A DNA stretch of 50,476 nucleotides, taken from a virus. Location of the stretch: positions 1 through 50,476 of IMG/VR virus record IMGVR_UViG_3300003635_000005, one strand, 5' to 3'. Both the position numbers and the translations under genes were made by a program. Below are positions 23,707 through 42,571 of the stretch, in pieces. How positions within the stretch are numbered: position 1 is the stretch's first letter; each line of letters begins with the position of its first letter. Below the pieces are notes generated by a model that worked only from the letters and a program-made list of their open reading frames with translations, was not told the DNA's origin and made no database searches.

Positions 23707-24168
23707 ATGAGCGCAAGCAAAGGCTCACGAGTGGAGCGCGAGTTGGTCAACCTACTCCTTGACCTCGGGTTTGAGATTATGCGGGCACCGTCCTCGGGAG
23801 CGGCCACGTCACGAGATCTCCCGGACGTGCTGGCCGGCAACGGTGACGGACTCATTGTGGCCGTGGAGTTGAAAGCGTGGAAAGACGGCACGCACTACTT
23901 TGACGAGGAGGAGGTGGCCGCTCTCCAACGGTTTGCAAACGGTTTTCACCCGGACACCGTGCCGCTCCTCGGCACCCGGTGGAATCAAGACACTCGGTTT
24001 TACGTTGCGAGGCCGGACGCCGAGGCGCTCCACCGGACGGACTCGGGCAACGTGCGTGCGAAAAAGGAGGTGGCCCGCGAGGAGTGGGAGACGTTGGAGG
24101 ACTATGTGAGCCGCAATTGGGAGGGTCTCCGTGACCACCAGCACTCTCAATCTCACTCTCCGGTATAA
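23707..24168 (+). CDS. hjc: Holliday junction resolvase, archaeal Hjc-like
   Basis: A 153-residue protein with the archaeal resolvase signature: SKGSRVERELVNLLLDLGF (catalytic Glu after GSRVER), RAPSSGA.TSRDLPDVLA (metal-binding Asp), and VAVELKAWK (the ExK motif). These are the residues of the Hjc/restriction-nuclease fold that cleaves four-way DNA junctions. In a virus it would resolve recombination intermediates or branched concatemers before packaging. Its last codons lie within the type A promoter for the next gene. It is the only recognisable DNA-processing enzyme outside the terminase. Confidence 0.85.
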   Translation: MSASKGSRVERELVNLLLDLGFEIMRAPSSGAATSRDLPDVLAGNGDGLIVAVELKAWKDGTHYFDEEEVAALQRFANGFHPDTVPLLGTRWNQDTRFYVARPDAEALHRTDSGNVRAKKEVAREEWETLEDYVSRNWEGLRDHQHSQSHSPV

Positions 24169-24200
24169 TTAAGAGGCTCCTTACCCAACGTCCGGGTGAG
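24149..24200 (+). promoter_or_regulatory. Type A promoter/operator inside the 3' end of the resolvase gene
   Basis: AATCTCAC (24149-24156), CTCCGGTATAATTAAG as the TATA region, and GGTGAG at 24195-24200. The resolvase stop codon (24166-24168) lies inside the CCGGTATAA part, so the C-terminal residues SQSHSPV are dictated by the promoter. The start context TTGAGCCACAATGCAAG is shared with the gene at 27914. Confidence 0.7.
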
Positions 24201-24210
24201 TTGAGCCACA

Positions 24211-26391
24211 ATGCAAGAGAGTAAGGCACTCGCTCGTTGGCTCCGTGACCTCACGGCCACGTATCACAACGAGGGAGACAAGGTTGACGTTGAGTTAACG
24301 GATCCGCGGGAGGGGAGTTATGCCGCACGAGACGGCTCCCATATCGGTATCAACCCCGCGGTGGAGGAGACCTTTGGAGTTGACGTGGAGCGGCCCAACC
24401 AACTCCGGGTAATATCGGACACCACGAGTCACGAGGTGGAGCACGTCAACGAGAGCGTGCTCACCCACAAGGCCGACTTTGCGGACGAGTATCCCATGGC
24501 GGCGGACGCCGCTGGCATGGTCCAAAACGTCCTTGAGGACACCTATATTGACCGCACCCGCACGGAGCGGTTTAGGGGCCTCCGGCGTGCTCACGCTTTC
24601 AAGATTGACACAATCATGGCCAATGACGAGGCCCGGCCACCCATGGAGGAGTGCAACCGTGGGCAAGCCTTTGTGGAGGGATTCTTGCAAGTGGCGTTTG
24701 CTGGCGGCGCAAAGGGAGACGTGACCGCTCACGAGGATCTTGAGGAGTGGTTGGAGTGGGTCAAGCCCATGATTGACCGTTGCCGGCATACCGACAACCC
24801 GGCGGGCCGGTATGAGATCTCCCACAAGGTCATGGTCAAACTCCTCACGTATCTCCCCGAGGAGGAGGCCCGCAAGCAAGCCAACGAGGCGGCGGACTCG
24901 GCGGCGGACGGCAACACCACGGACAAGACCGGAGACACCAGCGGTGACGCCGAGGATTGGAGCAAGGAGGAGGTGGAGGAGCACCTCAAGAGCCTCACCA
25001 AAGAGGACGTTGAGGACATGGACGGCGGTGAGGGAGGCCAAACGATTGACCCCGACGAGTTGGACGTGGACGAGGACGAGTTGGACTTTGATTGGGAGGA
25101 TCTCCCCGAGGGTGACGGCGGCGGTGGCGGCCCGGACACCACCGAGGAGGACGAGAGTGACGAGGGAGACGGCGGAGACGCCGGTGAGGAGGACGAGGAC
25201 GGTGACGAGGGAGACGGCGGAGACGCCGGTGAGGAGGACGAGGACGGTGACGAGTCCGATGACACCACCGGCGGTGACGAGGACGGTGAGGACGGCAACG
25301 AGGACACCGAGGAGGACGGTGACGGTGAGGACACCAGCGGTGAGGAGGATGACGCCGAGGACGTGAGCAACAAGAGCGGTGACGAGACCGCTCCCGGAGA
25401 GTTGGAAAACTCCGGCGGAGACCACGGACGAGGTGACGAGTTGGACGAGGACGTGGAGTTTGCTGGCCGCTCCGGTGAGTGGCACGGCCTCACGCAAGAG
25501 GAGGACTATGAGAGTCCGGGAGAGCAATGGGAGCGGCGTGCCGAGGCCATTGACCGGGAGGCCATGGAGGGCCAAACGGATCTCGGCCAACTCAAGCACG
25601 AGCGCCACGAGCGCATGGCCGAGGCGCAAGACTTTGGCCGGCAAAACTCCCACCGAGTCCGGGAGATCCTCCGTGACGAGGACACCGCTCAAGAGTTGAT
25701 TGACGCTTTCCGCCGGCTCCGCACGCGAGACGTTAAGGTGCCCGTCACCAGCGGTGAGGAGATCCACCTCAAAAACGCAATCCAACACCTCGCGGGAGAC
25801 TATACGGTGGAGCAAGTGTATCAACGCACCCGCCGGATTGAGACGGGAGACCGTGCCCTTGCCGTGAGTTGTGACCTATCCGGCTCCATGCGGCTCATGT
25901 CCGCTCTCACGGCTCTCGGTGCGTGCTACATATGCACCCGAGAGATTGGTGATGACTTTGCCGCCGTGGGATTTCACGGAGGCAACAACACCCCACTAAT
26001 CAAGGCGTTTGACGAGACGTGGGAGTGGGAGTTGGTGGACGGCGTGACCGCTGGCGGATCCACTCCCATGCCCGCCGGGATTGACACCGCACTCAATCTC
26101 TTTGACGGCGTGCGAGGCAAGGAGCGGGTGCTCATAGTCATCACGGACGGCATGGCCAACACCTCGTTGGACGGCGGAGACCCCGCCGAGGAGAGCGCAA
26201 GCCTCGTCACCACCGCTCAACAAGAGGGTGTCAAGGTCATTGGCCTCGGCGTTGGTGGTGTCAACGAGGAGTATATGCGCCGGATCTTTGGGAGTGACGG
26301 GTATGTGCTGGCGGACTCTCACAAGTTGGCCGAGGCGCTCATTGAGATCTATTACCGCCAAATGGATCTCGTCAAGGAGGGAGTGGTCTAA
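24211..26391 (+). CDS. VWA-domain protein with N-terminal HEXXH metallopeptidase-like region (CobT/NorD type)
   Basis: A 726-residue protein. Residues 74-78 are HEVEH, with a possible third ligand Glu109 in NVLEDTYID, the pattern of metallopeptidase-like domains fused to VWA. Residues about 235-420 are a very acidic low-complexity linker that includes a 45-bp tandem duplication. From about residue 545 a VWA domain follows, with MIDAS elements DLSGS (about 554), GGSTPM and VITDG (about 643). Such proteins act with MoxR-type AAA+ ATPases (CobS-CobT, NorQ-NorD). The matching ATPase is at 27914, and both genes share promoter type and start context. Confidence 0.8.
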   Translation: MQESKALARWLRDLTATYHNEGDKVDVELTDPREGSYAARDGSHIGINPAVEETFGVDVERPNQLRVISDTTSHEVEHVNESVLTHKADFADEYPMAADAAGMVQNVLEDTYIDRTRTERFRGLRRAHAFKIDTIMANDEARPPMEECNRGQAFVEGFLQVAFAGGAKGDVTAHEDLEEWLEWVKPMIDRCRHTDNPAGRYEISHKVMVKLLTYLPEEEARKQANEAADSAADGNTTDKTGDTSGDAEDWSKEEVEEHLKSLTKEDVEDMDGGEGGQTIDPDELDVDEDELDFDWEDLPEGDGGGGGPDTTEEDESDEGDGGDAGEEDEDGDEGDGGDAGEEDEDGDESDDTTGGDEDGEDGNEDTEEDGDGEDTSGEEDDAEDVSNKSGDETAPGELENSGGDHGRGDELDEDVEFAGRSGEWHGLTQEEDYESPGEQWERRAEAIDREAMEGQTDLGQLKHERHERMAEAQDFGRQNSHRVREILRDEDTAQELIDAFRRLRTRDVKVPVTSGEEIHLKNAIQHLAGDYTVEQVYQRTRRIETGDRALAVSCDLSGSMRLMSALTALGACYICTREIGDDFAAVGFHGGNNTPLIKAFDETWEWELVDGVTAGGSTPMPAGIDTALNLFDGVRGKERVLIVITDGMANTSLDGGDPAEESASLVTTAQQEGVKVIGLGVGGVNEEYMRRIFGSDGYVLADSHKLAEALIEIYYRQMDLVKEGVV
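25159..25248 (+). repeat. 45-bp tandem duplication in the acidic linker
   Basis: Two adjacent 45-base units (25159-25203 and 25204-25248) encode two copies of a 15-residue acidic, Gly-rich peptide containing GDGGDAG and EEDEDG. It changes only linker length in the VWA protein. Confidence 0.8.
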
Positions 26392-26702
26392 TGCTCACCC
26401 GTATCAAGGAGGCTCTCGGCCTCACGCCAAAGACAAAGCCGTGCGGGTGCCCGTGGCCGTCTCGTGGTGGATACCGGAGCGTGCGGCCACCGGACGCCAG
26501 CGAGACCGGGGAGTATCTCCGTGAGGTGGACGAGAGCAAGCCGTCCACCGTGGTCACGCGGCACTTGCAAGTCACCATGTACCGTTGCCACGAGTGCGGT
26601 GAGACCTTTGAGCAAGAGGGGCCGTGCGTGGGCAAGACAATCCGGTGGGAGGACGGTGAGGTGGAGCGCACCGGCCTCATTGCGGCCATGGAGGACTCAT
26701 GA
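26391..26702 (+). CDS. Small zinc-finger protein
   Basis: A 103-residue protein with CGCPWP near the N-terminus (Cys 18 and 20) and YRCHECGETFEQEGPCVG in the second half, giving enough Cys for one or two zinc sites. It starts on the A of the VWA gene's stop (TAATG), so it is co-translated with that protein and may be an accessory factor of the same system. Confidence 0.5.
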   Translation: MLTRIKEALGLTPKTKPCGCPWPSRGGYRSVRPPDASETGEYLREVDESKPSTVVTRHLQVTMYRCHECGETFEQEGPCVGKTIRWEDGEVERTGLIAAMEDS

Positions 26703-26719
26703 ACGTTGGAGGAGATCTT

Positions 26720-26989
26720 ATGGGTGAAAACCAGCACCTCATACCCGAGACGGAGATTGAGAGCAACAACGCGGCGTTGTCGGACGTGGAGAGCCTATGC
26801 GGAGAGCACTTTGACCACGTGGGCACCTACAATGTCCACTCGTGGGCCGGGTTTAGAGGCATGGAGGGCATGGAGGAGTATCTTGAGGAGAAAGCGGAGA
26901 CGTTGTGCCGGGAGTGCTTGCAAATAGCAACGCGGCACCACGGGTGGCCAGCAACCGCCGAGGTGCTCAAGGAGGTCCACCATGAGTGA
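26720..26989 (+). CDS. Hypothetical small protein, start fixed by strong SD
   Basis: I favour ATG 26720 (MGENQH) because GGAGGAG at 26708-26714 is an ideal Shine-Dalgarno sequence with 5-base spacing. ATG 26699, which overlaps the upstream stop, would add seven residues. The 89-residue product has SLCGEHF and ETLCRECLQIATRHHG, a possible C..C/H site. Function unknown. Confidence 0.5.
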   Translation: MGENQHLIPETEIESNNAALSDVESLCGEHFDHVGTYNVHSWAGFRGMEGMEEYLEEKAETLCRECLQIATRHHGWPATAEVLKEVHHE

Positions 26990-27656
26990 TGACAAGCCGG
27001 AGTGGGCAAAGCGCAATGACGAGATCCACAAGACCCTCACGGAGGCCGGCAAGGCGCTCAAAGACAAGGACACCCCTATCTCGGTGGAGGATCTCGCGGA
27101 CAACCGGATTGGAGACATAGCACGTGCCGAGGAGGAGCGGTTGGTCCGCACGCTCTTTGAGCGGATCCGGGAGGCCGAGGTGGAGGTGCATGACCCTCAA
27201 TTTGTGACGGACCCCGAGGATCTTGAGCCGGGCACCATGGACACCAGCACGGAGCGTGCTGGCCGGATTGACGCCGAGGGTGAGCCGCTCACCATTGACC
27301 ATATATATGACGCCGCCGAGATTGCCGAGAGCAACGGCTTTAGGGTGGACGCAAATGGGTGGGAGTGGTGGCTCCACCCGCGGCAACTCAACAATCTCCG
27401 TGATGACGAGGACGTAAAGCACCACCTCGCTGGTGCTGGCCCGGTCCTTGAGGCGGAGGAGGGAGAGTATGCCGCGGAGATTATCGGCACGCCAATCCGC
27501 ACTTTCCCGCAATTCCCGCGGGCCGCCGCTCTCCTCATTGACCCCGAGACGTTGGAGCCGGAGCACGCCGTGGGGAGCCGCGTGCCCAAAGCGGTGCTGG
27601 TGCGAGATCCACGCCGCGTGGTCCGTATCACCGGCCTCGGTCTCTCCCCGGACTAA
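26982..27656 (+). CDS. Hypothetical protein, 224 residues
   Basis: An acidic protein with a helical N-terminal half (to about residue 65) and a beta-rich C-terminal half (GFRVDANGWEWWLHPRQL, then IIGTPIRTFPQFP and RAAALLIDP). The C-terminal pattern recalls parts of viral structural proteins, but the gene lies in the MoxR-VWA region. I do not recognise a family. It ends the transcription unit from 24211; a likely new promoter begins at once at 27661. Confidence 0.45.
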   Translation: MSDDKPEWAKRNDEIHKTLTEAGKALKDKDTPISVEDLADNRIGDIARAEEERLVRTLFERIREAEVEVHDPQFVTDPEDLEPGTMDTSTERAGRIDAEGEPLTIDHIYDAAEIAESNGFRVDANGWEWWLHPRQLNNLRDDEDVKHHLAGAGPVLEAEEGEYAAEIIGTPIRTFPQFPRAAALLIDPETLEPEHAVGSRVPKAVLVRDPRRVVRITGLGLSPD

Positions 27657-27851
27657 CCCCGGCCTCTTTAACCCCGGACGGCATACGTCCGCGTGCGGTG
27701 TTGTCGGACATGACCACCGCGGCGGGCCGTGCATTGTGGCTCACCTAACAATCCTCGGCCCGCTCACCTCCGCACTAACATAGTGCGGCGGTGGCATATC
27801 GGCTCACTACTCACCACCCGAAAGCGGTGCTTAACGGCTCCCCGTCCTCCG
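27657..27851 (+). ncRNA. Non-coding segment with own TATA-like box and competing hairpins (candidate small RNA or leader)
   Basis: No convincing gene lies here. CTCTTTAACCCCGG at 27664-27677 closely matches the box before the tRNA (GTCTTTAACCCCGG). CGGACG-GCATA-CGTCCG (27675-27691) is a perfect 6-bp hairpin whose 3' arm could instead pair with CGGAC at 27705-27709. CCGCACTA-ACA-TAGTGCGG (27770-27788) is an 8-bp perfect hairpin. The only short frame (27710, 12 codons) is not supported. It may be a short structured RNA or a regulatory leader. Confidence 0.35.
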
Positions 27852-27880
27852 TATCTCACTATCCGGTATAACTAAGTAGG
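27852..27880 (+). promoter_or_regulatory. Type A promoter before the MoxR-like gene
   Basis: TATCTCAC (27852-27859) and ATCCGGTATAACTAAGTAGG as the TATA region, about 35 bases before ATG 27914. The 3' GGTGAG half-site is degenerate here (GCGAGTGG). Confidence 0.62.
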
Positions 27881-27913
27881 TCCGTGCTAAACAAGCGAGT
27901 GGATTGAGCCACA

Positions 27914-28519
27914 ATGCAAGCGAAAGACGCAATTGACGCCATAGAGGACGGCAACGAGACGGTCAAGGAGATTGCCGAGTATCTTGACCTCCACAAAAAC
28001 AACGTGGGCAAGCAACTCAAGCGCATAGCGGAGGATCCGGGCAACCCCGTGGACCGGGAGCCGGAGGGCCGTGGTCATCGGTATTACCTCAACGAGGATC
28101 TCACCAGCGGAGACGCCGCCGAGGCAACGCCGGTTGCTGGTGGCCGAGACTATGATTGGGAGGAGTATCTCCCGGACCCCAACCGCGTGCCCGCATATGA
28201 GCCGTTTAGGGACGAGTGGGACGGTATCAATGACGAGATTGACTTTGTGCAAGAGTGGTTGGAGGACCACCCGGACCCCGAGAGTTGGGAGGACGCCGCA
28301 TGGGAGCCGCGGCTCCCGCACTTCAAATTGGAGGGGCCAACCGGGAGCGCAAAGACCACGCTTTTCAAATCGCTGGCGTTGGAGCGTGGGTGGCCCGTCT
28401 TTACCCTACAAGTGGCCTATCAAATGGACAAGTCCGACATTGTGGGGAGTGCCCGGCTCCGTGCTGGTGAGACCGTATGGCAAGACGAGGTGCTTGTCAA
28501 AACCGGCCCGTGGTCCTAA
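27914..28519 (+). CDS. MoxR/CobS-type AAA+ ATPase, N-terminal part (HTH plus Walker A)
   Basis: A 201-residue frame. Residues 1-60 are a winged helix (VKEIAEYLDLHKNNVGKQLK then a wing GHRYYL). After an acidic linker comes FKLEGPTGSAKTTLFKSLA with Walker A at 141-149, and then DKSDIVGSARLRAGETVWQ, the post-Walker A segment of MoxR proteins. The frame stops at 28519 just before the Walker B region, which continues in another frame. It is therefore half of an ATPase unless the two frames are joined by frameshifting or the assembly lacks one base. Partner: the VWA protein at 24211. Confidence 0.78.
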   Translation: MQAKDAIDAIEDGNETVKEIAEYLDLHKNNVGKQLKRIAEDPGNPVDREPEGRGHRYYLNEDLTSGDAAEATPVAGGRDYDWEEYLPDPNRVPAYEPFRDEWDGINDEIDFVQEWLEDHPDPESWEDAAWEPRLPHFKLEGPTGSAKTTLFKSLALERGWPVFTLQVAYQMDKSDIVGSARLRAGETVWQDEVLVKTGPWS

Positions 28520-29265
28520 TCGTTGACGAGGCCAACCGTGCGCCGCCGAGAGCAAAGAGTGCGCTCTTTGAGTCTCTTGACTTTCGGTGCGCCATTGAGT
28601 TGAAGGGACGAGGCGGTGAGGTGATTGAGGGCAACCCCTTCAACCTCATAGTTGGTGCCACTATCAACAAGGGGCCGGGATACCACGTTGAGCCGATTGA
28701 CAAGGCCGAAAAACGCCGATACGGCAACACGTGGGAGGTTGGATACCTCGGCATGGCTCCCGAAAACGAGGACGGCGTGAGTGGCAAGGAGCGTGAGGCG
28801 GATCTCATTGCCAGCAAGTCACCGGCCAGCAAGCGCCTCGCGGAGTTAATGGTTGAGGCGGCCAACGACGTCCGTGAGCGGGCCGAGGACCCCACGAGTG
28901 ACGTGCGGAGTGGCCTCCCGGTGGACTATACAATCTCGTGGGCACAAACGGCGGCGGCACGCCACCACGCGGGCCGTGATAATCCCGTCATCAAGGCCGG
29001 GCAAGCCGCGGTCATTGACTCATACTATGACGAGAGACAAGAGGAGGCCGACGAGGTGTTTAGCGTGCTCACCTCGCACCTTGACGGCGTGCCGTTTGAG
29101 CGTGACGAGTTGAGCGAGTGGGCCGGCGGAGCCGAGGAGAGAGTCACGTGCATGAATTGCGATTATACGGACAGCGTGGACGAGGCCGAGAGTCAAGGCG
29201 TGCTTGATTGGATGGAGTGCCCGGAGTGCAACCATGACGTTAAGCGAGTGGGTGGAGGTGAGTAA
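28477..29265 (+). CDS. MoxR/CobS-type AAA+ ATPase, C-terminal part (Walker B) with zinc ribbon
   Basis: A frame open from 28477, one base back in phase relative to the previous gene. Homology begins at PVVLIVDEANRAPP (about 28507), the Walker B motif with the MoxR-type NRAPP, followed by a sensor-1 region (FNLIVGATIN) and the C-terminal lid. The end carries CMNC...CPEC, a zinc ribbon. ATG 28477 has GGTGAG upstream, but its first ten residues look like an out-of-frame translation. Either two subunits are made or one protein is produced across the break. Confidence 0.72.
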   Translation: MARRGACQNRPVVLIVDEANRAPPRAKSALFESLDFRCAIELKGRGGEVIEGNPFNLIVGATINKGPGYHVEPIDKAEKRRYGNTWEVGYLGMAPENEDGVSGKEREADLIASKSPASKRLAELMVEAANDVRERAEDPTSDVRSGLPVDYTISWAQTAAARHHAGRDNPVIKAGQAAVIDSYYDERQEEADEVFSVLTSHLDGVPFERDELSEWAGGAEERVTCMNCDYTDSVDEAESQGVLDWMECPECNHDVKRVGGGE

Positions 29266-29744
29266 TGCCATACACCTATCACAAGGACCCACGGGAGCGC
29301 CACGGCACCCAACGCCACGTTTACCTCGGCGTGGATCTTGAGGCGGACCAAACGAGGACGTGGCCGTGCGCTTGCGGCAACAAGAAGGTCCTCACTATCG
29401 GCCTCGCTCACGTCACCGACGTGGCGGACGTGGAGGGCATGAGCGAGTGGCTTGAGCGGAGCGAGGTCAACAACCATTGCGCCGCAAAGGCCCGCCAGCA
29501 ACTCGGCCTTGCACCAGCACTCACCGAGGTGGACGGCGTGACGTTGAGCAAGTCCCTATACCTCAAGGAGGCCGGCATTGAGACGTGGTGGGATCTCGTC
29601 AACACCAGCGAGGGAGAGTTGGCCATGGTGGAGGGCATTGACAAGGAGTTGGCCGCACGTATCAAGACGGACGTGGGTGGCCACCGTGAGAGCGAGGCCG
29701 TGGCTTACAACGAGCGGCTCACCTCGTGGGGTGGAGGCCGGTGA
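29265..29744 (+). CDS. Hypothetical protein with Cys pair and C-terminal helix-hairpin-helix
   Basis: A 159-residue protein. The N-terminal part has WPCACGNKKVLTIG, one half of a zinc knuckle. The C-terminal part (TWWDLVNTSEGELAMVEGID followed by KELAARIKTDVG) matches a helix-hairpin-helix DNA-binding pattern, with the loop at VEGID. Coupled to the ATPase gene (TAATG) and to the next gene (GTGA), it may be a DNA-binding member of the MoxR-VWA module. Confidence 0.55.
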   Translation: MPYTYHKDPRERHGTQRHVYLGVDLEADQTRTWPCACGNKKVLTIGLAHVTDVADVEGMSEWLERSEVNNHCAAKARQQLGLAPALTEVDGVTLSKSLYLKEAGIETWWDLVNTSEGELAMVEGIDKELAARIKTDVGGHRESEAVAYNERLTSWGGGR

Positions 29745-30211
29745 TATTCACCTCGCACCCGGACCTCACCGAGGAGGTCCACCTATGGCTTGATGACATG
29801 GCGGAGCAAGTCGCTGGAGATCTTGACGAGGACGGCACGCCGGAGAGCCGGACCTTTGAGCCAACCACCTCCGCCATGTGTGGTGAGGAGCCGGACCTCC
29901 ACGGCGGCTCCCTCACGCCAGCAAGCGAGACGTGGGCCAGCAACGTCATGGATCTCCTCGGCACCACCGGAGTGTGTGAGGAGTGCCGGACTCGCGTGGC
30001 CCTCTATTACGATATGGCCGACGAGGTGACGCTTGACGCCACCAGCGACGGGGTGCCGGTTTGCCCGGAGTGTGAGAGCATATACCGGACGGCCACCCTC
30101 CGCCGAGTCTATACGGACACCGTGGACGGCTCCACGGAGGCCATAGCCACCCGCCACCACGGTTGTGACGAGTGCGGCCACGAGTGGGAGACGGACGTGG
30201 TGATTGAGTGA
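29741..30211 (+). CDS. Zinc-ribbon protein with GTG start
   Basis: The most likely start is GTG 29741, overlapping the upstream TGA, with GGAGG at 29733-29737 as SD. The 156-residue product has CEEC (about 85-88), CPEC and CDECGHEW near the C-terminus, compatible with two zinc sites. The final unit resembles a TFIIS-like ribbon ending. Function unknown. Confidence 0.52.
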   Translation: MIFTSHPDLTEEVHLWLDDMAEQVAGDLDEDGTPESRTFEPTTSAMCGEEPDLHGGSLTPASETWASNVMDLLGTTGVCEECRTRVALYYDMADEVTLDATSDGVPVCPECESIYRTATLRRVYTDTVDGSTEAIATRHHGCDECGHEWETDVVIE

Positions 30212-30777
30212 CTATGGTAATGCTCAATACGGACATAGGTGAGGACGAGGACCACGATAAGGTGCACCTCTTTCTCTCCCACAAGACGGAGGACAATCTC
30301 TTGCCGGTGGCGTTGTGTGGAGATATGAGCATGGGTCACTTTCACCTTGAGCCGGCCAGCGAGGCCGTGCAAGTCCTCCCCGTGCCAACCGAAAAGGCAC
30401 GCAAGGGCTTGTGGGCCTCCCTCCGGCACCTTCAAGAGGAGTATCTCCTTTGTGAGGAGTGCACCAGCGAGTATCTTGACGCCACGAGGGAGCCACCGCA
30501 AGAGCACGAGGTGGACGTGGATCCGGTCACGGACGGCGGCGGCAACTTTTGGTGGGCCGCCAAACCCGGCGAGTTGCACATTTGGACGAGGGAGCCGCAC
30601 GTTGACACTCCCGCCTTGTGTGGAGAGTGGGCACGGGAGTGGGACACCAACCCGCTGGCGGAGCACCCTATGGTCAAGGACGGCACTAAGGAGACGTTGG
30701 AGGAGTTTATCCGCCTCGTTGCTGTTTGTGACGAGTGCCGTGAGACCGCACGAGAGCGGTATGGTTTCACCGCATGA
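30208..30777 (+). CDS. Internally duplicated CxxC protein
   Basis: A protein of about 189 residues. GTG 30208 overlaps the upstream stop; ATG 30214 or 30220 are alternatives. It contains two related halves: ALCGDMSMG leading to LLCEECTSEYLDA, and ALCGEWAREW leading to AVCDECRETARERYG. Each half thus has a Cys plus a CxxC, suggesting two tandem copies of one small zinc domain that arose by duplication. It ends the transcription unit before the repeat-rich gap. Confidence 0.52.
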   Translation: MTMVMLNTDIGEDEDHDKVHLFLSHKTEDNLLPVALCGDMSMGHFHLEPASEAVQVLPVPTEKARKGLWASLRHLQEEYLLCEECTSEYLDATREPPQEHEVDVDPVTDGGGNFWWAAKPGELHIWTREPHVDTPALCGEWAREWDTNPLAEHPMVKDGTKETLEEFIRLVAVCDECRETARERYGFTA

Positions 30778-35237: not shown

Positions 35238-35310
35238 ACTCCCGTGGTGTAGTGGCCAATCATACGTGCCTTTGGAGCACGTGACCCCGATTCAAATTCG
35301 GGCGGGAGGA
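35238..35310 (+). tRNA. tRNA-Gln (anticodon UUG)
   Basis: The 73 bases fold as a tRNA: acceptor 35238-35244 with 35303-35309 (an A.G mismatch at 1-72, six pairs after it), a D arm with AGTGGCCAA loop, an anticodon stem CGTGC/GCACG with loop CTTTGGA (anticodon TTG), a 4-base variable loop, and a T arm CCCGA/TCGGG with loop TTCAAAT. The discriminator is A and CCA is not encoded. The D-arm sequence is like that of haloarchaeal tRNA-Gln. It would read CAA, the almost exclusive Gln codon of this genome. Confidence 0.9.
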
Positions 35311-35424
35311 CTTTAGCACTCTCCGCCGTTTATACAAAGCCCTTGAAAGCGTGGAGCACCTCGCTCGTGCCCGCTCGTGCCGTCTCGCTTAGTTGCTCCG
35401 GTGTCCTTAGCACTATCACGCACG

Positions 35425-40614: not shown

Positions 40615-40916
40615 CCGACGAGTTGGGTGCGGAGTATCGGTATCTATGCACCACGTGCCACGAGATCCTTGACCCACGCGAGGTCCGCCAGCATACCGGG
40701 GAGTGCGCCGCCGTCTCCACGCTCTCCCGGTTGGATATGTGGCTCACGGACAACGTGGACTCGTGCCCGGAGTGCGAGGCCAGCGTGGAGGAGATCCGTC
40801 CGCCGCACCACGCTCATTGGATACCGTGGCACGAGGACGGAGCCGAGAGCGTGCTCCTCAAGCCGTGCGGGCACGAGGTGGACACCGAGGAGGTCATCAA
40901 TGAGCACGGAGAGTGA
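40611..40916 (+). CDS. Zinc-finger protein before the large terminase, 101 residues
   Basis: Starts at ATG 40611 (MTDELGAEY). It has LCTTCHEILDPREVRQHTGEC, with C..C....H....C spacing like a C2HC finger, and CPEC...KPCGHEV as a second site. The large terminase gene begins inside its last 17 bases, so the two are co-translated. Confidence 0.52.
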   Translation: MTDELGAEYRYLCTTCHEILDPREVRQHTGECAAVSTLSRLDMWLTDNVDSCPECEASVEEIRPPHHAHWIPWHEDGAESVLLKPCGHEVDTEEVINEHGE

Positions 40917-41874
40917 CCAACCGGAGGATAGGGGCCTCCGCAACGCCACGGTGTATGGCTTTGAGCCGCTTGAGTGGCAAGACCCCTTTATCCACACAAC
41001 GGCCCGCGAGGTGTTGGGGAGCGGCGCTTTCGGATCCGGTAAGAGCCGGGCACTCAACGAGCGTGGCGTGCTCTTGAGCATAGCCTATCCGGGCAATATC
41101 GGCCTCCTCACCCGTAACACGCTCAAGGCACTCCGCAACACCACGTTGGAAAACCTCCGCAACGAGGTGCTCCCTCGCTCGTGGATTATCCCGGAGTTGA
41201 CCAACCAGCAAAAGCAAGTCATTGCAATCCAATCCCCGCTTTACCCGGCCTCATATTGCCCGGAGTGTGGCCACGAGAGTGAGCGGCGCACGCACGAGGA
41301 GACGGTGGAGTGTCCGGCGTGCCACGAGGCGCTCCTTGAGGCGGTGCCGGCCTCACTAATCTATTATGACGGCCTCCAAACCACCGATGACGCCGACATA
41401 CCGGAGAATATCCTAAGCCTTGAGTTGGGGTGGATTGGCGTGGACGAGGCAAAGGACATTGAGGAGAGCGCGTGGAAAGCCCTCAACGGACGGCTCCGGT
41501 TGGAGCGCCTCAACAATCCGTATGTGCCGGAGTTGCCCTTTCGCACCATTTTCGGCACCACCAACCCGGCGGATCCTAACCATTGGCTCCACAAGCGATT
41601 TTATGAGGACGGCGTGGGGGAGTATTACGAAAGCGAGACCACGGACAACCTCGCAAATCTCCCCGATGACTATTTGCAAACGCTCAAGGAGCAATATGGT
41701 GAGGACACCAGCGAGGCGCTCCGGTATATCCGCGGCAAGTGGACGGGATACTCCGGCCTCGTGTTTGACGAGTTTAAGGACGAGATCCACCTCGTTGAGC
41801 CGTTGGACGTGCCGGAGATCCTCGGTGACGGGTGGACAGGAGGAGTTAGAGGCCAACGAGCAAGAGGTGAGTGA
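40900..41874 (+). CDS. terL: Large terminase, ATPase part (frame 1)
   Basis: From ATG 40900 this frame encodes 324 residues with an adenine-binding-type WQDPF (26-30), Walker A GSGAFGSGKS (40-49), a CPEC...CPAC zinc insertion (about 119-150), and Walker B-like GWIGVDEAKD, then FGTTNP (coupling motif). This is the packaging motor domain. The frame ends at 41874 in a linker, and the nuclease domain continues in the +1 frame from about 41837. Either this is a true split, a programmed +1 shift near ACAGGAGGAG, or an assembly error. Confidence 0.82.
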   Translation: MSTESDQPEDRGLRNATVYGFEPLEWQDPFIHTTAREVLGSGAFGSGKSRALNERGVLLSIAYPGNIGLLTRNTLKALRNTTLENLRNEVLPRSWIIPELTNQQKQVIAIQSPLYPASYCPECGHESERRTHEETVECPACHEALLEAVPASLIYYDGLQTTDDADIPENILSLELGWIGVDEAKDIEESAWKALNGRLRLERLNNPYVPELPFRTIFGTTNPADPNHWLHKRFYEDGVGEYYESETTDNLANLPDDYLQTLKEQYGEDTSEALRYIRGKWTGYSGLVFDEFKDEIHLVEPLDVPEILGDGWTGGVRGQRARGE

Positions 41875-42571
41875 GCAAGTCGGGGTGCCCAACAAGCCGG
41901 GCCAATACACTCCGGCCCGAGTGTATCCTCCCGAGGACGCCAGCATACTCATGGCGATTGATTGGGGATATAGGCCGGACCCACTCGTGGTCCAATGGTG
42001 GGCACTCACCGAGACCCACGGCTTTGTGCTATATCGGGAGTGGTTCAAGAGCCGAGTGCTCCCCGATGACGCCGCACGGGAGTGCATGGATCTCATGGAG
42101 CCGTATGAGTGCAACAACGTGGTCCGGTGCTATGCGGACCATGATAGTGGAGACCGTGAGAGTTGGCTCAAGGGTGCCCGCGAGTATGTCAACGAGGGAG
42201 TGGAGGAGGGCCGGTGGGAGGGAGACACCAGCAAGCCGGATTGGCGGCGGGTGCAAACCACCGCCGCCGCAAAGGACCGGGAGAAAGGCGTGCAAGAGGT
42301 CAAGCGCCGCATGAGGCCGGACAAGCACAACCGGGCCGAGGTCCACCTCGTCAAGGGAGCGCGTGCTCACCAAATTGACCGGCAACTCAACTCCGCGGAC
42401 AAGCCGGGCCGCACCCTCGCGGAGATCCGCGGGTATGGGTATGAGGACGAGGATAGTGACAACCCGCAAGACGGCAATGACCACGGTGTTGACACCATGC
42501 GGTATTGCATTTACTCCCACCGTAAGAAGGGACGCACCAGCGGATCCGGCTCCTCCGTCATCAAGAGTTAG
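41837..42571 (+). CDS. terL: Large terminase, nuclease part (frame 2)
   Basis: This frame continues the linker (QEELEANEQE) and then gives the RNase H-like nuclease: ILMAIDWGYRPDP (first catalytic Asp), YADHDSGDRESW (second Asp), and GVDTMRYCIYSH (third Asp). It ends in a Ser/Gly-rich tail. If translated alone, the best start is GTG 41867, which overlaps the stop of the first part (GTGAGTGA). Reading both parts as one protein would give about 570 residues, a normal terminase length. Confidence 0.78.
   Translation, partial: QEELEANEQEVSEQVGVPNKPGQYTPARVYPPEDASILMAIDWGYRPDPLVVQWWALTETHGFVLYREWFKSRVLPDDAARECMDLMEPYECNNVVRCYADHDSGDRESWLKGAREYVNEGVEEGRWEGDTSKPDWRRVQTTAAAKDREKGVQEVKRRMRPDKHNRAEVHLVKGARAHQIDRQLNSADKPGRTLAEIRGYGYEDEDSDNPQDGNDHGVDTMRYCIYSHRKKGRTSGSGSSVIKS

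What the first reader, a model, noticed from the sequence alone, without database searches (positions are those of the whole stretch)
24211..30777. Viral MoxR-VWA module with metallopeptidase-like domain, zinc and HhH partners
Seen: a VWA protein with MIDAS motif and N-terminal HEVEH plus Glu, an HTH-fused MoxR-type ATPase, a helix-hairpin-helix protein coupled to it, and several zinc proteins, with both key genes sharing promoter type and start context (TTGAGCCACAATGCAAG). Known: MoxR-VWA pairs act as metal-insertion or remodelling chaperones (CobS-CobT, NorQ-NorD). Inference: in a virus lacking replication genes, this ATP-driven remodelling system may act on host complexes, possibly with proteolysis, and the HTH and HhH parts suggest recruitment to DNA.
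Basis: partly seen in the sequence, partly recalled or inferred. Interest (0 to 1): 0.72.

Follow-up and report, generated by a model that had tools for sequence, protein, structure and literature searches.

The report
Viral protease-chaperone pair, misnamed as CobST
A virus of salt-loving archaea carries a two-gene molecular machine, an ATP-driven ring and a partner with a likely zinc-protease domain, that the literature on these viruses files under vitamin B12 synthesis but that looks more like a protein-remodelling protease.

Summary
The pair is real. The window is a Saparoviridae-like halovirus genome. Its VWA protein (24211-26391) has an intact MIDAS site and an N-terminal domain with HEVEH plus NVLED. 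A predicted model of that domain (pLDDT 85) matches zinc metallopeptidases of the gluzincin type, with both motifs on the expected helices. Across 16 phage and halovirus VWA proteins the only invariant columns are H, E, H, N and D of these motifs. Five cellular CobT proteins lack HExxH, although their N-terminal domain has the same predicted fold. So halovirus 'CobT' (Liu 2021) keeps a metallopeptidase site that true CobT lacks. The terminase gene is broken too, so this is probably an assembly error. The ATPase and VWA genes are linked in all seven relatives where both could be seen. In most of these viruses the two genes carry matched upstream leaders, restricted to this module in the window and in HHTV-2. 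HhH and small zinc proteins are not conserved partners. Jumbo phages were already reported to carry MoxR plus metallopeptidase-VWA, so this is a new variant of a known kind. Substrate and proteolysis remain unproven.

The parts
24159..24173 (+). TATA-like promoter element TCCGGTATAATTAAG of the VWA gene, matched to the one of the ATPase gene
   Evidence: exact only here and at 27862; the 75-nt leader pair outscores all 496 background comparisons
24201..24217 (+). shared start context TTGAGCCACAATGCAAG (VWA gene)
   Evidence: exact copies only at 24201 and 27904, 0.07 expected at up to 3 mismatches
24211..26391 (+). zincin-VWA protein, 726 aa
24211..24846 (+). N-terminal gluzincin-like domain, residues 1-212
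   Evidence: AF2 pLDDT 84.8, pTM 0.81; zincins head the structural matches; BFVD matches to phage VWA proteins
24430..24444 (+). HEVEH zinc motif, residues 74-78, on predicted helix 61-81
   Evidence: H, E, H invariant in 16 phage proteins
24526..24540 (+). NVLED, predicted third ligand E109 with N106 and D110, on helix 95-120
   Evidence: N and D invariant, E 15 of 16
24853..25500 (+). low-complexity acidic linker; the place where HHTV-2, L007 and L011 encode two separate proteins instead
25852..26352 (+). VWA domain with MIDAS DLSGS (25873-25887) and TDG (26143-26151)
   Evidence: Pfam VWA; best solved relatives are NorD, 1.1e-23
27862..27876 (+). matched TATA-like promoter element TCCGGTATAACTAAG of the ATPase gene
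27904..27920 (+). shared start context (ATPase gene)
27914..28519 (+). 5' part of MoxR/CobS-like ATPase: wHTH (residues 1-59) and Walker A GPTGSAKT (28334-28357)
   Evidence: PF07728 2.8e-8 and weak HTH hits; PHROG 29395 2.9e-27; conserved wHTH in relatives
28477..29265 (+). 3' part of the ATPase in another frame: Walker B VVLIVDE (28510-28530) to C-terminal zinc ribbon CxxC..CPxC (29149-29229)
   Evidence: PHROG 29395 1.5e-73; 37-47% identity to HHTV-2, HCTV-2 and Hardycor1 ATPases
28495..28515 (+). frame break: about 19 nt missing relative to relatives (LTKALLASREGP against LVKTGP)

Best explanation
The two genes encode an ATP-driven remodelling machine with a built-in metallopeptidase. The ATPase is a MoxR/CobS-type AAA+ ring carrying a winged HTH and a zinc ribbon. 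Its VWA partner docks through the MIDAS site, as in NorQD, and carries an N-terminal gluzincin domain (HEVEH plus NVLED). Most likely the ring, positioned by the VWA protein, unfolds or loosens a bound target so that the zincin domain can clip it. The genes have separate but matched promoters and leaders, so both parts are made together. It is not a cobalt chelatase in the strict sense: it is a homologue of CobST in which the peptidase site is kept. The target is probably a protein of a replication, transcription or host nucleoprotein complex rather than the capsid. Shown: domains, conserved residues, predicted fold, linkage, matched leaders. Inferred: zinc binding, proteolysis, complex formation, target.
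For: Linkage: ATPase and VWA genes lie in the same direction within about 3 kb in HCTV-2, HHTV-2, Hardycor1, L006, L007, L009 and L010. HVTV-1, Cyrano, RHph_X66, PokyPuppy and the cyanophages P-SSM2 and S-RIM14 pair them too. Zincin: AF2 model pLDDT 84.8; of the first 27 VIA rows, 26 are named metallopeptidases (BepA Z 6.5, rmsd 4.0, 134 aligned; DPP III 6.1; abylysin 5.7; Wss1 5.6; selecase 5.4; LTA4 hydrolase 5.4). H74, E75, H78, N106 and D110 are the only invariant columns among 16 phage proteins, the others 11-42% identical to the window. Five cellular CobT proteins have no HExxH. VWA part: NorD is the best solved relative (1.1e-23). Co-inheritance: distances of zincin, VWA and ATPase domains correlate 0.90-0.96 over 8 viruses. 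Co-expression: matched leaders. Neighbours: in other phages the pair sits beside clamp, clamp loader, DNA polymerase, ligase or sigma genes.
Against: No activity or complex is shown. Zincin folds with intact HExxH can act as non-proteolytic metal-binding scaffolds. The ATPase in this record is frameshifted. The target is inferred from neighbourhood only.
Confidence: 0.55

Rival explanations
1. Viral CobST: the pair replaces the host's missing CobS and CobT, hijacks host CobN and raises cobalamin production for nucleotide synthesis (the published reading for Druskaviridae and Saparoviridae).
For: Proposed in Liu 2021, PMC8651126. Cellular CobT's N-terminal domain has the same predicted order of helices and strands and matches HHTV-2's domain in BFVD with probability 1.0. 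The enterophage Cyrano protein matches Pfam CobT (6.4e-27) while also carrying HEVAH and NALED, so the families are homologous.
Against: The window protein has no Pfam CobT or CobT_C match at E up to 1; among 12 halovirus sequences there is one weak match to each model. Cellular CobT lacks HExxH, while phage proteins keep it as their most conserved feature. The best solved VWA relatives are NorD. No cobN-like or other cobalamin gene was seen among the window proteins scanned.
Confidence: 0.17
2. Virion assembly and maturation chaperone-protease: it remodels and clips structural proteins, as proposed for the jumbo-phage MoxR and metallopeptidase-vWA pair and by analogy with the tail chaperones of Acidianus two-tailed virus.
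For: Proposed in PMC7824862; the virus needs head maturation, and head genes are in the window.
Against: The window already has a separate protein matching head maturation protease families (59-931). The pair lies outside the morphogenesis module here and beside replication genes in other phages. It has its own promoter-like leaders.
Confidence: 0.18
3. The N-terminal domain is a catalytically silent zincin scaffold, and the pair is a plain MoxR-VWA chaperone or metal-insertion factor like NorQD or RavA-ViaA.
For: MoxR-VWA pairs studied experimentally so far act without a peptidase; NorD is the best PDB relative.
Against: The HExxH and NxxED residues, including the catalytic Glu, are the most conserved positions across very divergent phages.
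Confidence: 0.1

Closest known systems
MoxR AAA+ with N-terminal metallopeptidase-vWA protein of group 2.2 jumbo phages (PMC7824862)
   Same: two-gene pair, VWA protein fused to an N-terminal metallopeptidase domain
   Different: halovirus ATPase adds a wHTH and a C-terminal zinc ribbon; peptidase and VWA are separate genes in some haloviruses; matched leaders; no direct sequence comparison with those accessions was made here
Halovirus 'CobS/CobT' of Druskaviridae and Saparoviridae (PMC8651126) and vwa/aaa of Hardycor1 (PMC7911831)
   Same: the same genes: HCTV-2 and HHTV-2 are direct relatives of the window's module, HVTV-1 a distant one
   Different: in the passages read, those papers name no metallopeptidase domain; one calls the peptidase annotation of cyanophage cobT mistaken
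Cellular CobST of aerobic cobaltochelatase
   Same: AAA+ plus VWA pair; the CobT N-terminal domain has the same predicted fold
   Different: cellular CobT lacks HExxH; the window protein does not match the CobT or CobT_C profiles
NorQD nitric oxide reductase chaperone
   Same: closest solved relative of the VWA part (9qhd, 1.1e-23)
   Different: the match covers only the C-terminal part of NorD (398-642 of 646); no match to the zincin part
Minigluzincins (abylysin, jannalysin, selecase) and M48 peptidases
   Same: predicted fold and HExxH plus Glu helix
   Different: embedded in a VWA protein paired with an AAA+ ATPase; weak structural scores; no sequence similarity detected

Membership tests
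MoxR AAA+ / VWA chaperone pair | AAA+ ATPase of MoxR/CobS type with Walker A and B | tested here: met
   AAA_5 1.5e-19 and AAA_3 1.1e-9 in HHTV-2; both motifs present in the window but in two frames
MoxR AAA+ / VWA chaperone pair | neighbouring VWA protein with MIDAS | tested here: met
   DxSxS and TDG; linked in all seven relatives with both genes in view
MoxR AAA+ / VWA chaperone pair | physical ATP-dependent complex | not testable with these tools
   needs proteins
gluzincin metallopeptidase | HExxH on a helix and a third-ligand Glu on a following helix | tested here: met
   residues 74-78 on helix 61-81, E109 on helix 95-120; HExxH in 16 of 16 and E109 in 15 of 16
gluzincin metallopeptidase | zincin fold | tested here: met
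   26 of the first 27 VIA rows are metallopeptidases, Z 4.6-6.5; middling scores, on a predicted model
gluzincin metallopeptidase | zinc binding and peptide cleavage | not testable with these tools
   no coordinates or assay
cobaltochelatase CobST | Pfam CobT (PF06213) and CobT_C (PF11775) over cut-off in the VWA protein | tested here: not met
   none at E up to 1 in the window protein; one of 12 members at 0.77 and one of 12 at 0.0024
cobaltochelatase CobST | N-terminal fold of CobT | tested here: met
   same order of elements, BFVD match to HHTV-2 probability 1.0; sequence profiles do not match
cobaltochelatase CobST | works with CobN in cobalt insertion | not testable with these tools
   host unknown
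jumbo-phage MoxR plus metallopeptidase-vWA pair | homology to ASV44728/ASV44729 | not tested
   architecture taken from PMC7824862; sequences not fetched

The most novel reading that the evidence does not exclude
Phage and halovirus 'CobT' proteins are members of one ancient class of ATP-driven zincin-VWA proteases, and cellular CobT is a descendant whose peptidase site has decayed, so 'cobST' counted as a B12 auxiliary metabolic gene in hundreds of phages is a protease-chaperone for viral replication or takeover.
Probability: 0.33. Interest if true: 0.75.

Novelty: new variant of a known kind. Interest (0 to 1): 0.5.

Why it matters
Relatives of the pair's ATPase (searched with the Cyrano phage CobS) were found in 797 of 50,697 phage records, and the pair is commonly counted as a vitamin B12 auxiliary metabolic gene. 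If the partner is a working metallopeptidase, that label is wrong for many viruses, and a conserved phage protein-remodelling protease is waiting for an assay. HHTV-2 and HCTV-2 are cultured, and HHTV-2 makes the peptidase domain as a separate protein, so the question can be tested directly.

Tried and rejected
Programmed frameshifting of the ATPase was rejected: no slippery site is evident, six codons are missing as well, all relatives are single ORFs, and terL is also out of frame in this record. Sequence homology of the zincin domain to CobT by profile comparison gave probability 1-2%; the link appears only through the Cyrano protein and predicted structures. NorD does not appear among the listed structural matches of the N-terminal domain. 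No cellular homologue of the halovirus domain was found in genome contigs. An RNA element in the matched leaders was tested: folding z-scores ranged from -4.1 to +1.5, with no common structure. Rfam found only a tRNA. The HhH protein as a conserved partner was rejected: its only hits are the C-termini of 530-545 aa proteins in L009 and L010. No near-identical strain was found by exact 29-mer to settle the frame break. Foldseek alone gave no significant PDB hit for the zincin domain (best E 0.37).

Full report
What the window is. The record is a 50,476-base viral contig. Its major capsid protein is 64% identical to those of HCTV-2 and HHTV-2, and its terminase is closest to HHTV-2 (46%), so it is a Saparoviridae-like tailed halovirus.

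The VWA protein. Window 24211-26391 encodes 726 residues. The C-terminal VWA domain has the MIDAS residues DLSGS and TDG. A profile of twelve sequences from relatives finds NorD as best solved structure, 1.1e-23, over the C-terminal part only. A long acidic linker separates it from the N-terminal domain.

The N-terminal domain. Relatives in IMG/VR and GenBank keep HExxH, followed about 27-30 residues later by N[VI][LV]ED. An AlphaFold2 model of the window's domain, from eight sequences, has pLDDT 84.8 and pTM 0.81. It has a helix, two strands, a helix with HEVEH, and a later helix with E109, which is the order expected of a gluzincin (established knowledge of the fold). Foldseek alone gives no significant PDB match, but VIA-align puts named zinc metallopeptidases in 26 of the first 27 rows, Z 4.6-6.5. 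These scores are middling by the tool's own note, so the weight rests on the agreement of fold class with motif position. In an alignment of sixteen phage and halovirus proteins, the others 11-42% identical to the window, the only invariant columns are H74, E75, H78, N106 and D110; E109 is kept in 15.

Relation to CobT. Liu 2021 (PMC8651126) calls these genes cobS and cobT, proposes that they hijack host CobN, and calls the peptidase annotation of cyanophage cobT mistaken. Five plasmid-borne bacterial CobT proteins lack HExxH, and the window protein matches neither CobT Pfam profile. Yet the CobT N-terminal domain, modelled from 26 sequences at pLDDT 88.9, has the same order of elements, matches phage VWA proteins and the HHTV-2 domain in BFVD, and its first three VIA rows are selecase twice and an M61 peptidase, although unrelated folds follow closely. 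The Cyrano phage protein is a bridge: it matches Pfam CobT at 6.4e-27 and carries HEVAH with NALED. The simplest reading is one superfamily in which phages keep the metallopeptidase site and cellular CobT has lost it; the direction of that change is inferred, not shown. Thus the viral proteins are homologues of CobT but not CobT by its defining profiles.

Prior art. Jumbo phages were reported to have a MoxR ATPase paired with a vWA protein fused to an N-terminal metallopeptidase, proposed for virion assembly (PMC7824862). Hardycor1's vwa and aaa genes were described without the peptidase domain in the passages read (PMC7911831). The architecture is therefore not new; its identity in haloviruses and the conflict with the CobST label are.

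The ATPase. The wHTH and Walker A lie in ORF 27914-28519, and Walker B to the zinc ribbon in ORF 28477-29265, in another frame. Relatives have one ORF. Comparison shows about 19 nt missing at the junction. TerL, an essential gene, is also broken in this record, while HHTV-2's is intact. An assembly or sequencing error is most likely; a real defect of this genome is not excluded. The wHTH and the C-terminal CxxC/CPxC ribbon are conserved in the Saparoviridae and Hardycor1 group; the HVTV-1 ATPase shows neither in its sequence.

Linkage and co-expression. Both genes occur together in all seven relatives where both could be seen; in L011 the contig ends first. In HHTV-2, L007 and L011 the peptidase and VWA parts are separate genes. 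Upstream leaders of the module genes resemble each other within a virus but differ between viruses. The window's pair outscores all 496 background comparisons. In HHTV-2 the leader occurs in the whole record only before genes 2, 3 and 10. L009 and L010 have near-identical leaders of more than 50 nt on both genes, with partial copies elsewhere. In L007 and Hardycor1 the same leader also precedes other genes, and HCTV-2 and L006 lack the pattern. No common RNA fold was found. This suggests shared regulation, perhaps by a viral DNA-binding protein; whether the ATPase's own wHTH does this is speculation.

Mechanism. Shown: domain anatomy, conserved residues, predicted fold, linkage, matched leaders, co-inheritance. 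Inferred: zinc binding, peptide cleavage, assembly of ring and VWA partner, and target. Because the pair sits beside replication or transcription genes in several phages and the halovirus ATPase carries a wHTH, a nucleoprotein target is favoured over the capsid, with low confidence.

Verdict. The finding is a new variant of a known kind whose main value is to put the published cobalamin reading in doubt.

Noticed in passing
window 40627-41874 and 41420-42571: Terminase large subunit is split by a frame break near 41835-41860, while HHTV-2's is one ORF; a second sign of indel errors in this record.
   Followed up: partly
window 24159/27862 and 24201/27904; L012:387, 1697, 5952; L010:6192, 7943; L011:7947, 8986, 12590: Module genes carry leaders that are near-copies within a virus but differ between viruses; in L011 a third copy lies at the contig end, where the ATPase gene would be expected.
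   Followed up: yes
L009:7939-7999 and L010:7940-8000: The leaders hold an inverted repeat with matching changes on both sides (AGCAGC..GCTGCT against AGCGCCG..CGGCGCT), a possible operator or hairpin.
   Followed up: partly
L004:1703 and L007:9301: When the VWA part is a separate gene, its product starts with a short conserved segment (ETGEVIAEDLTAVEIEKLQAAGAEV-like) not seen in the fused proteins.
   Followed up: no
window 23707-24168: Archaeal Holliday-junction resolvase (Hjc, 8.8e-19) lies directly upstream of the VWA gene.
   Followed up: no
window 35238-35311: tRNA-Gln(TTG); HVTV-1 also has a tRNA-Gln(ttg), close to its VWA gene.
   Followed up: no
window 28334-28357: Walker A reads GPTGSAKT, with Ala where relatives have Gly; from own knowledge, archaeal MCM helicases have a similar GDPGTAKS.
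   Followed up: no
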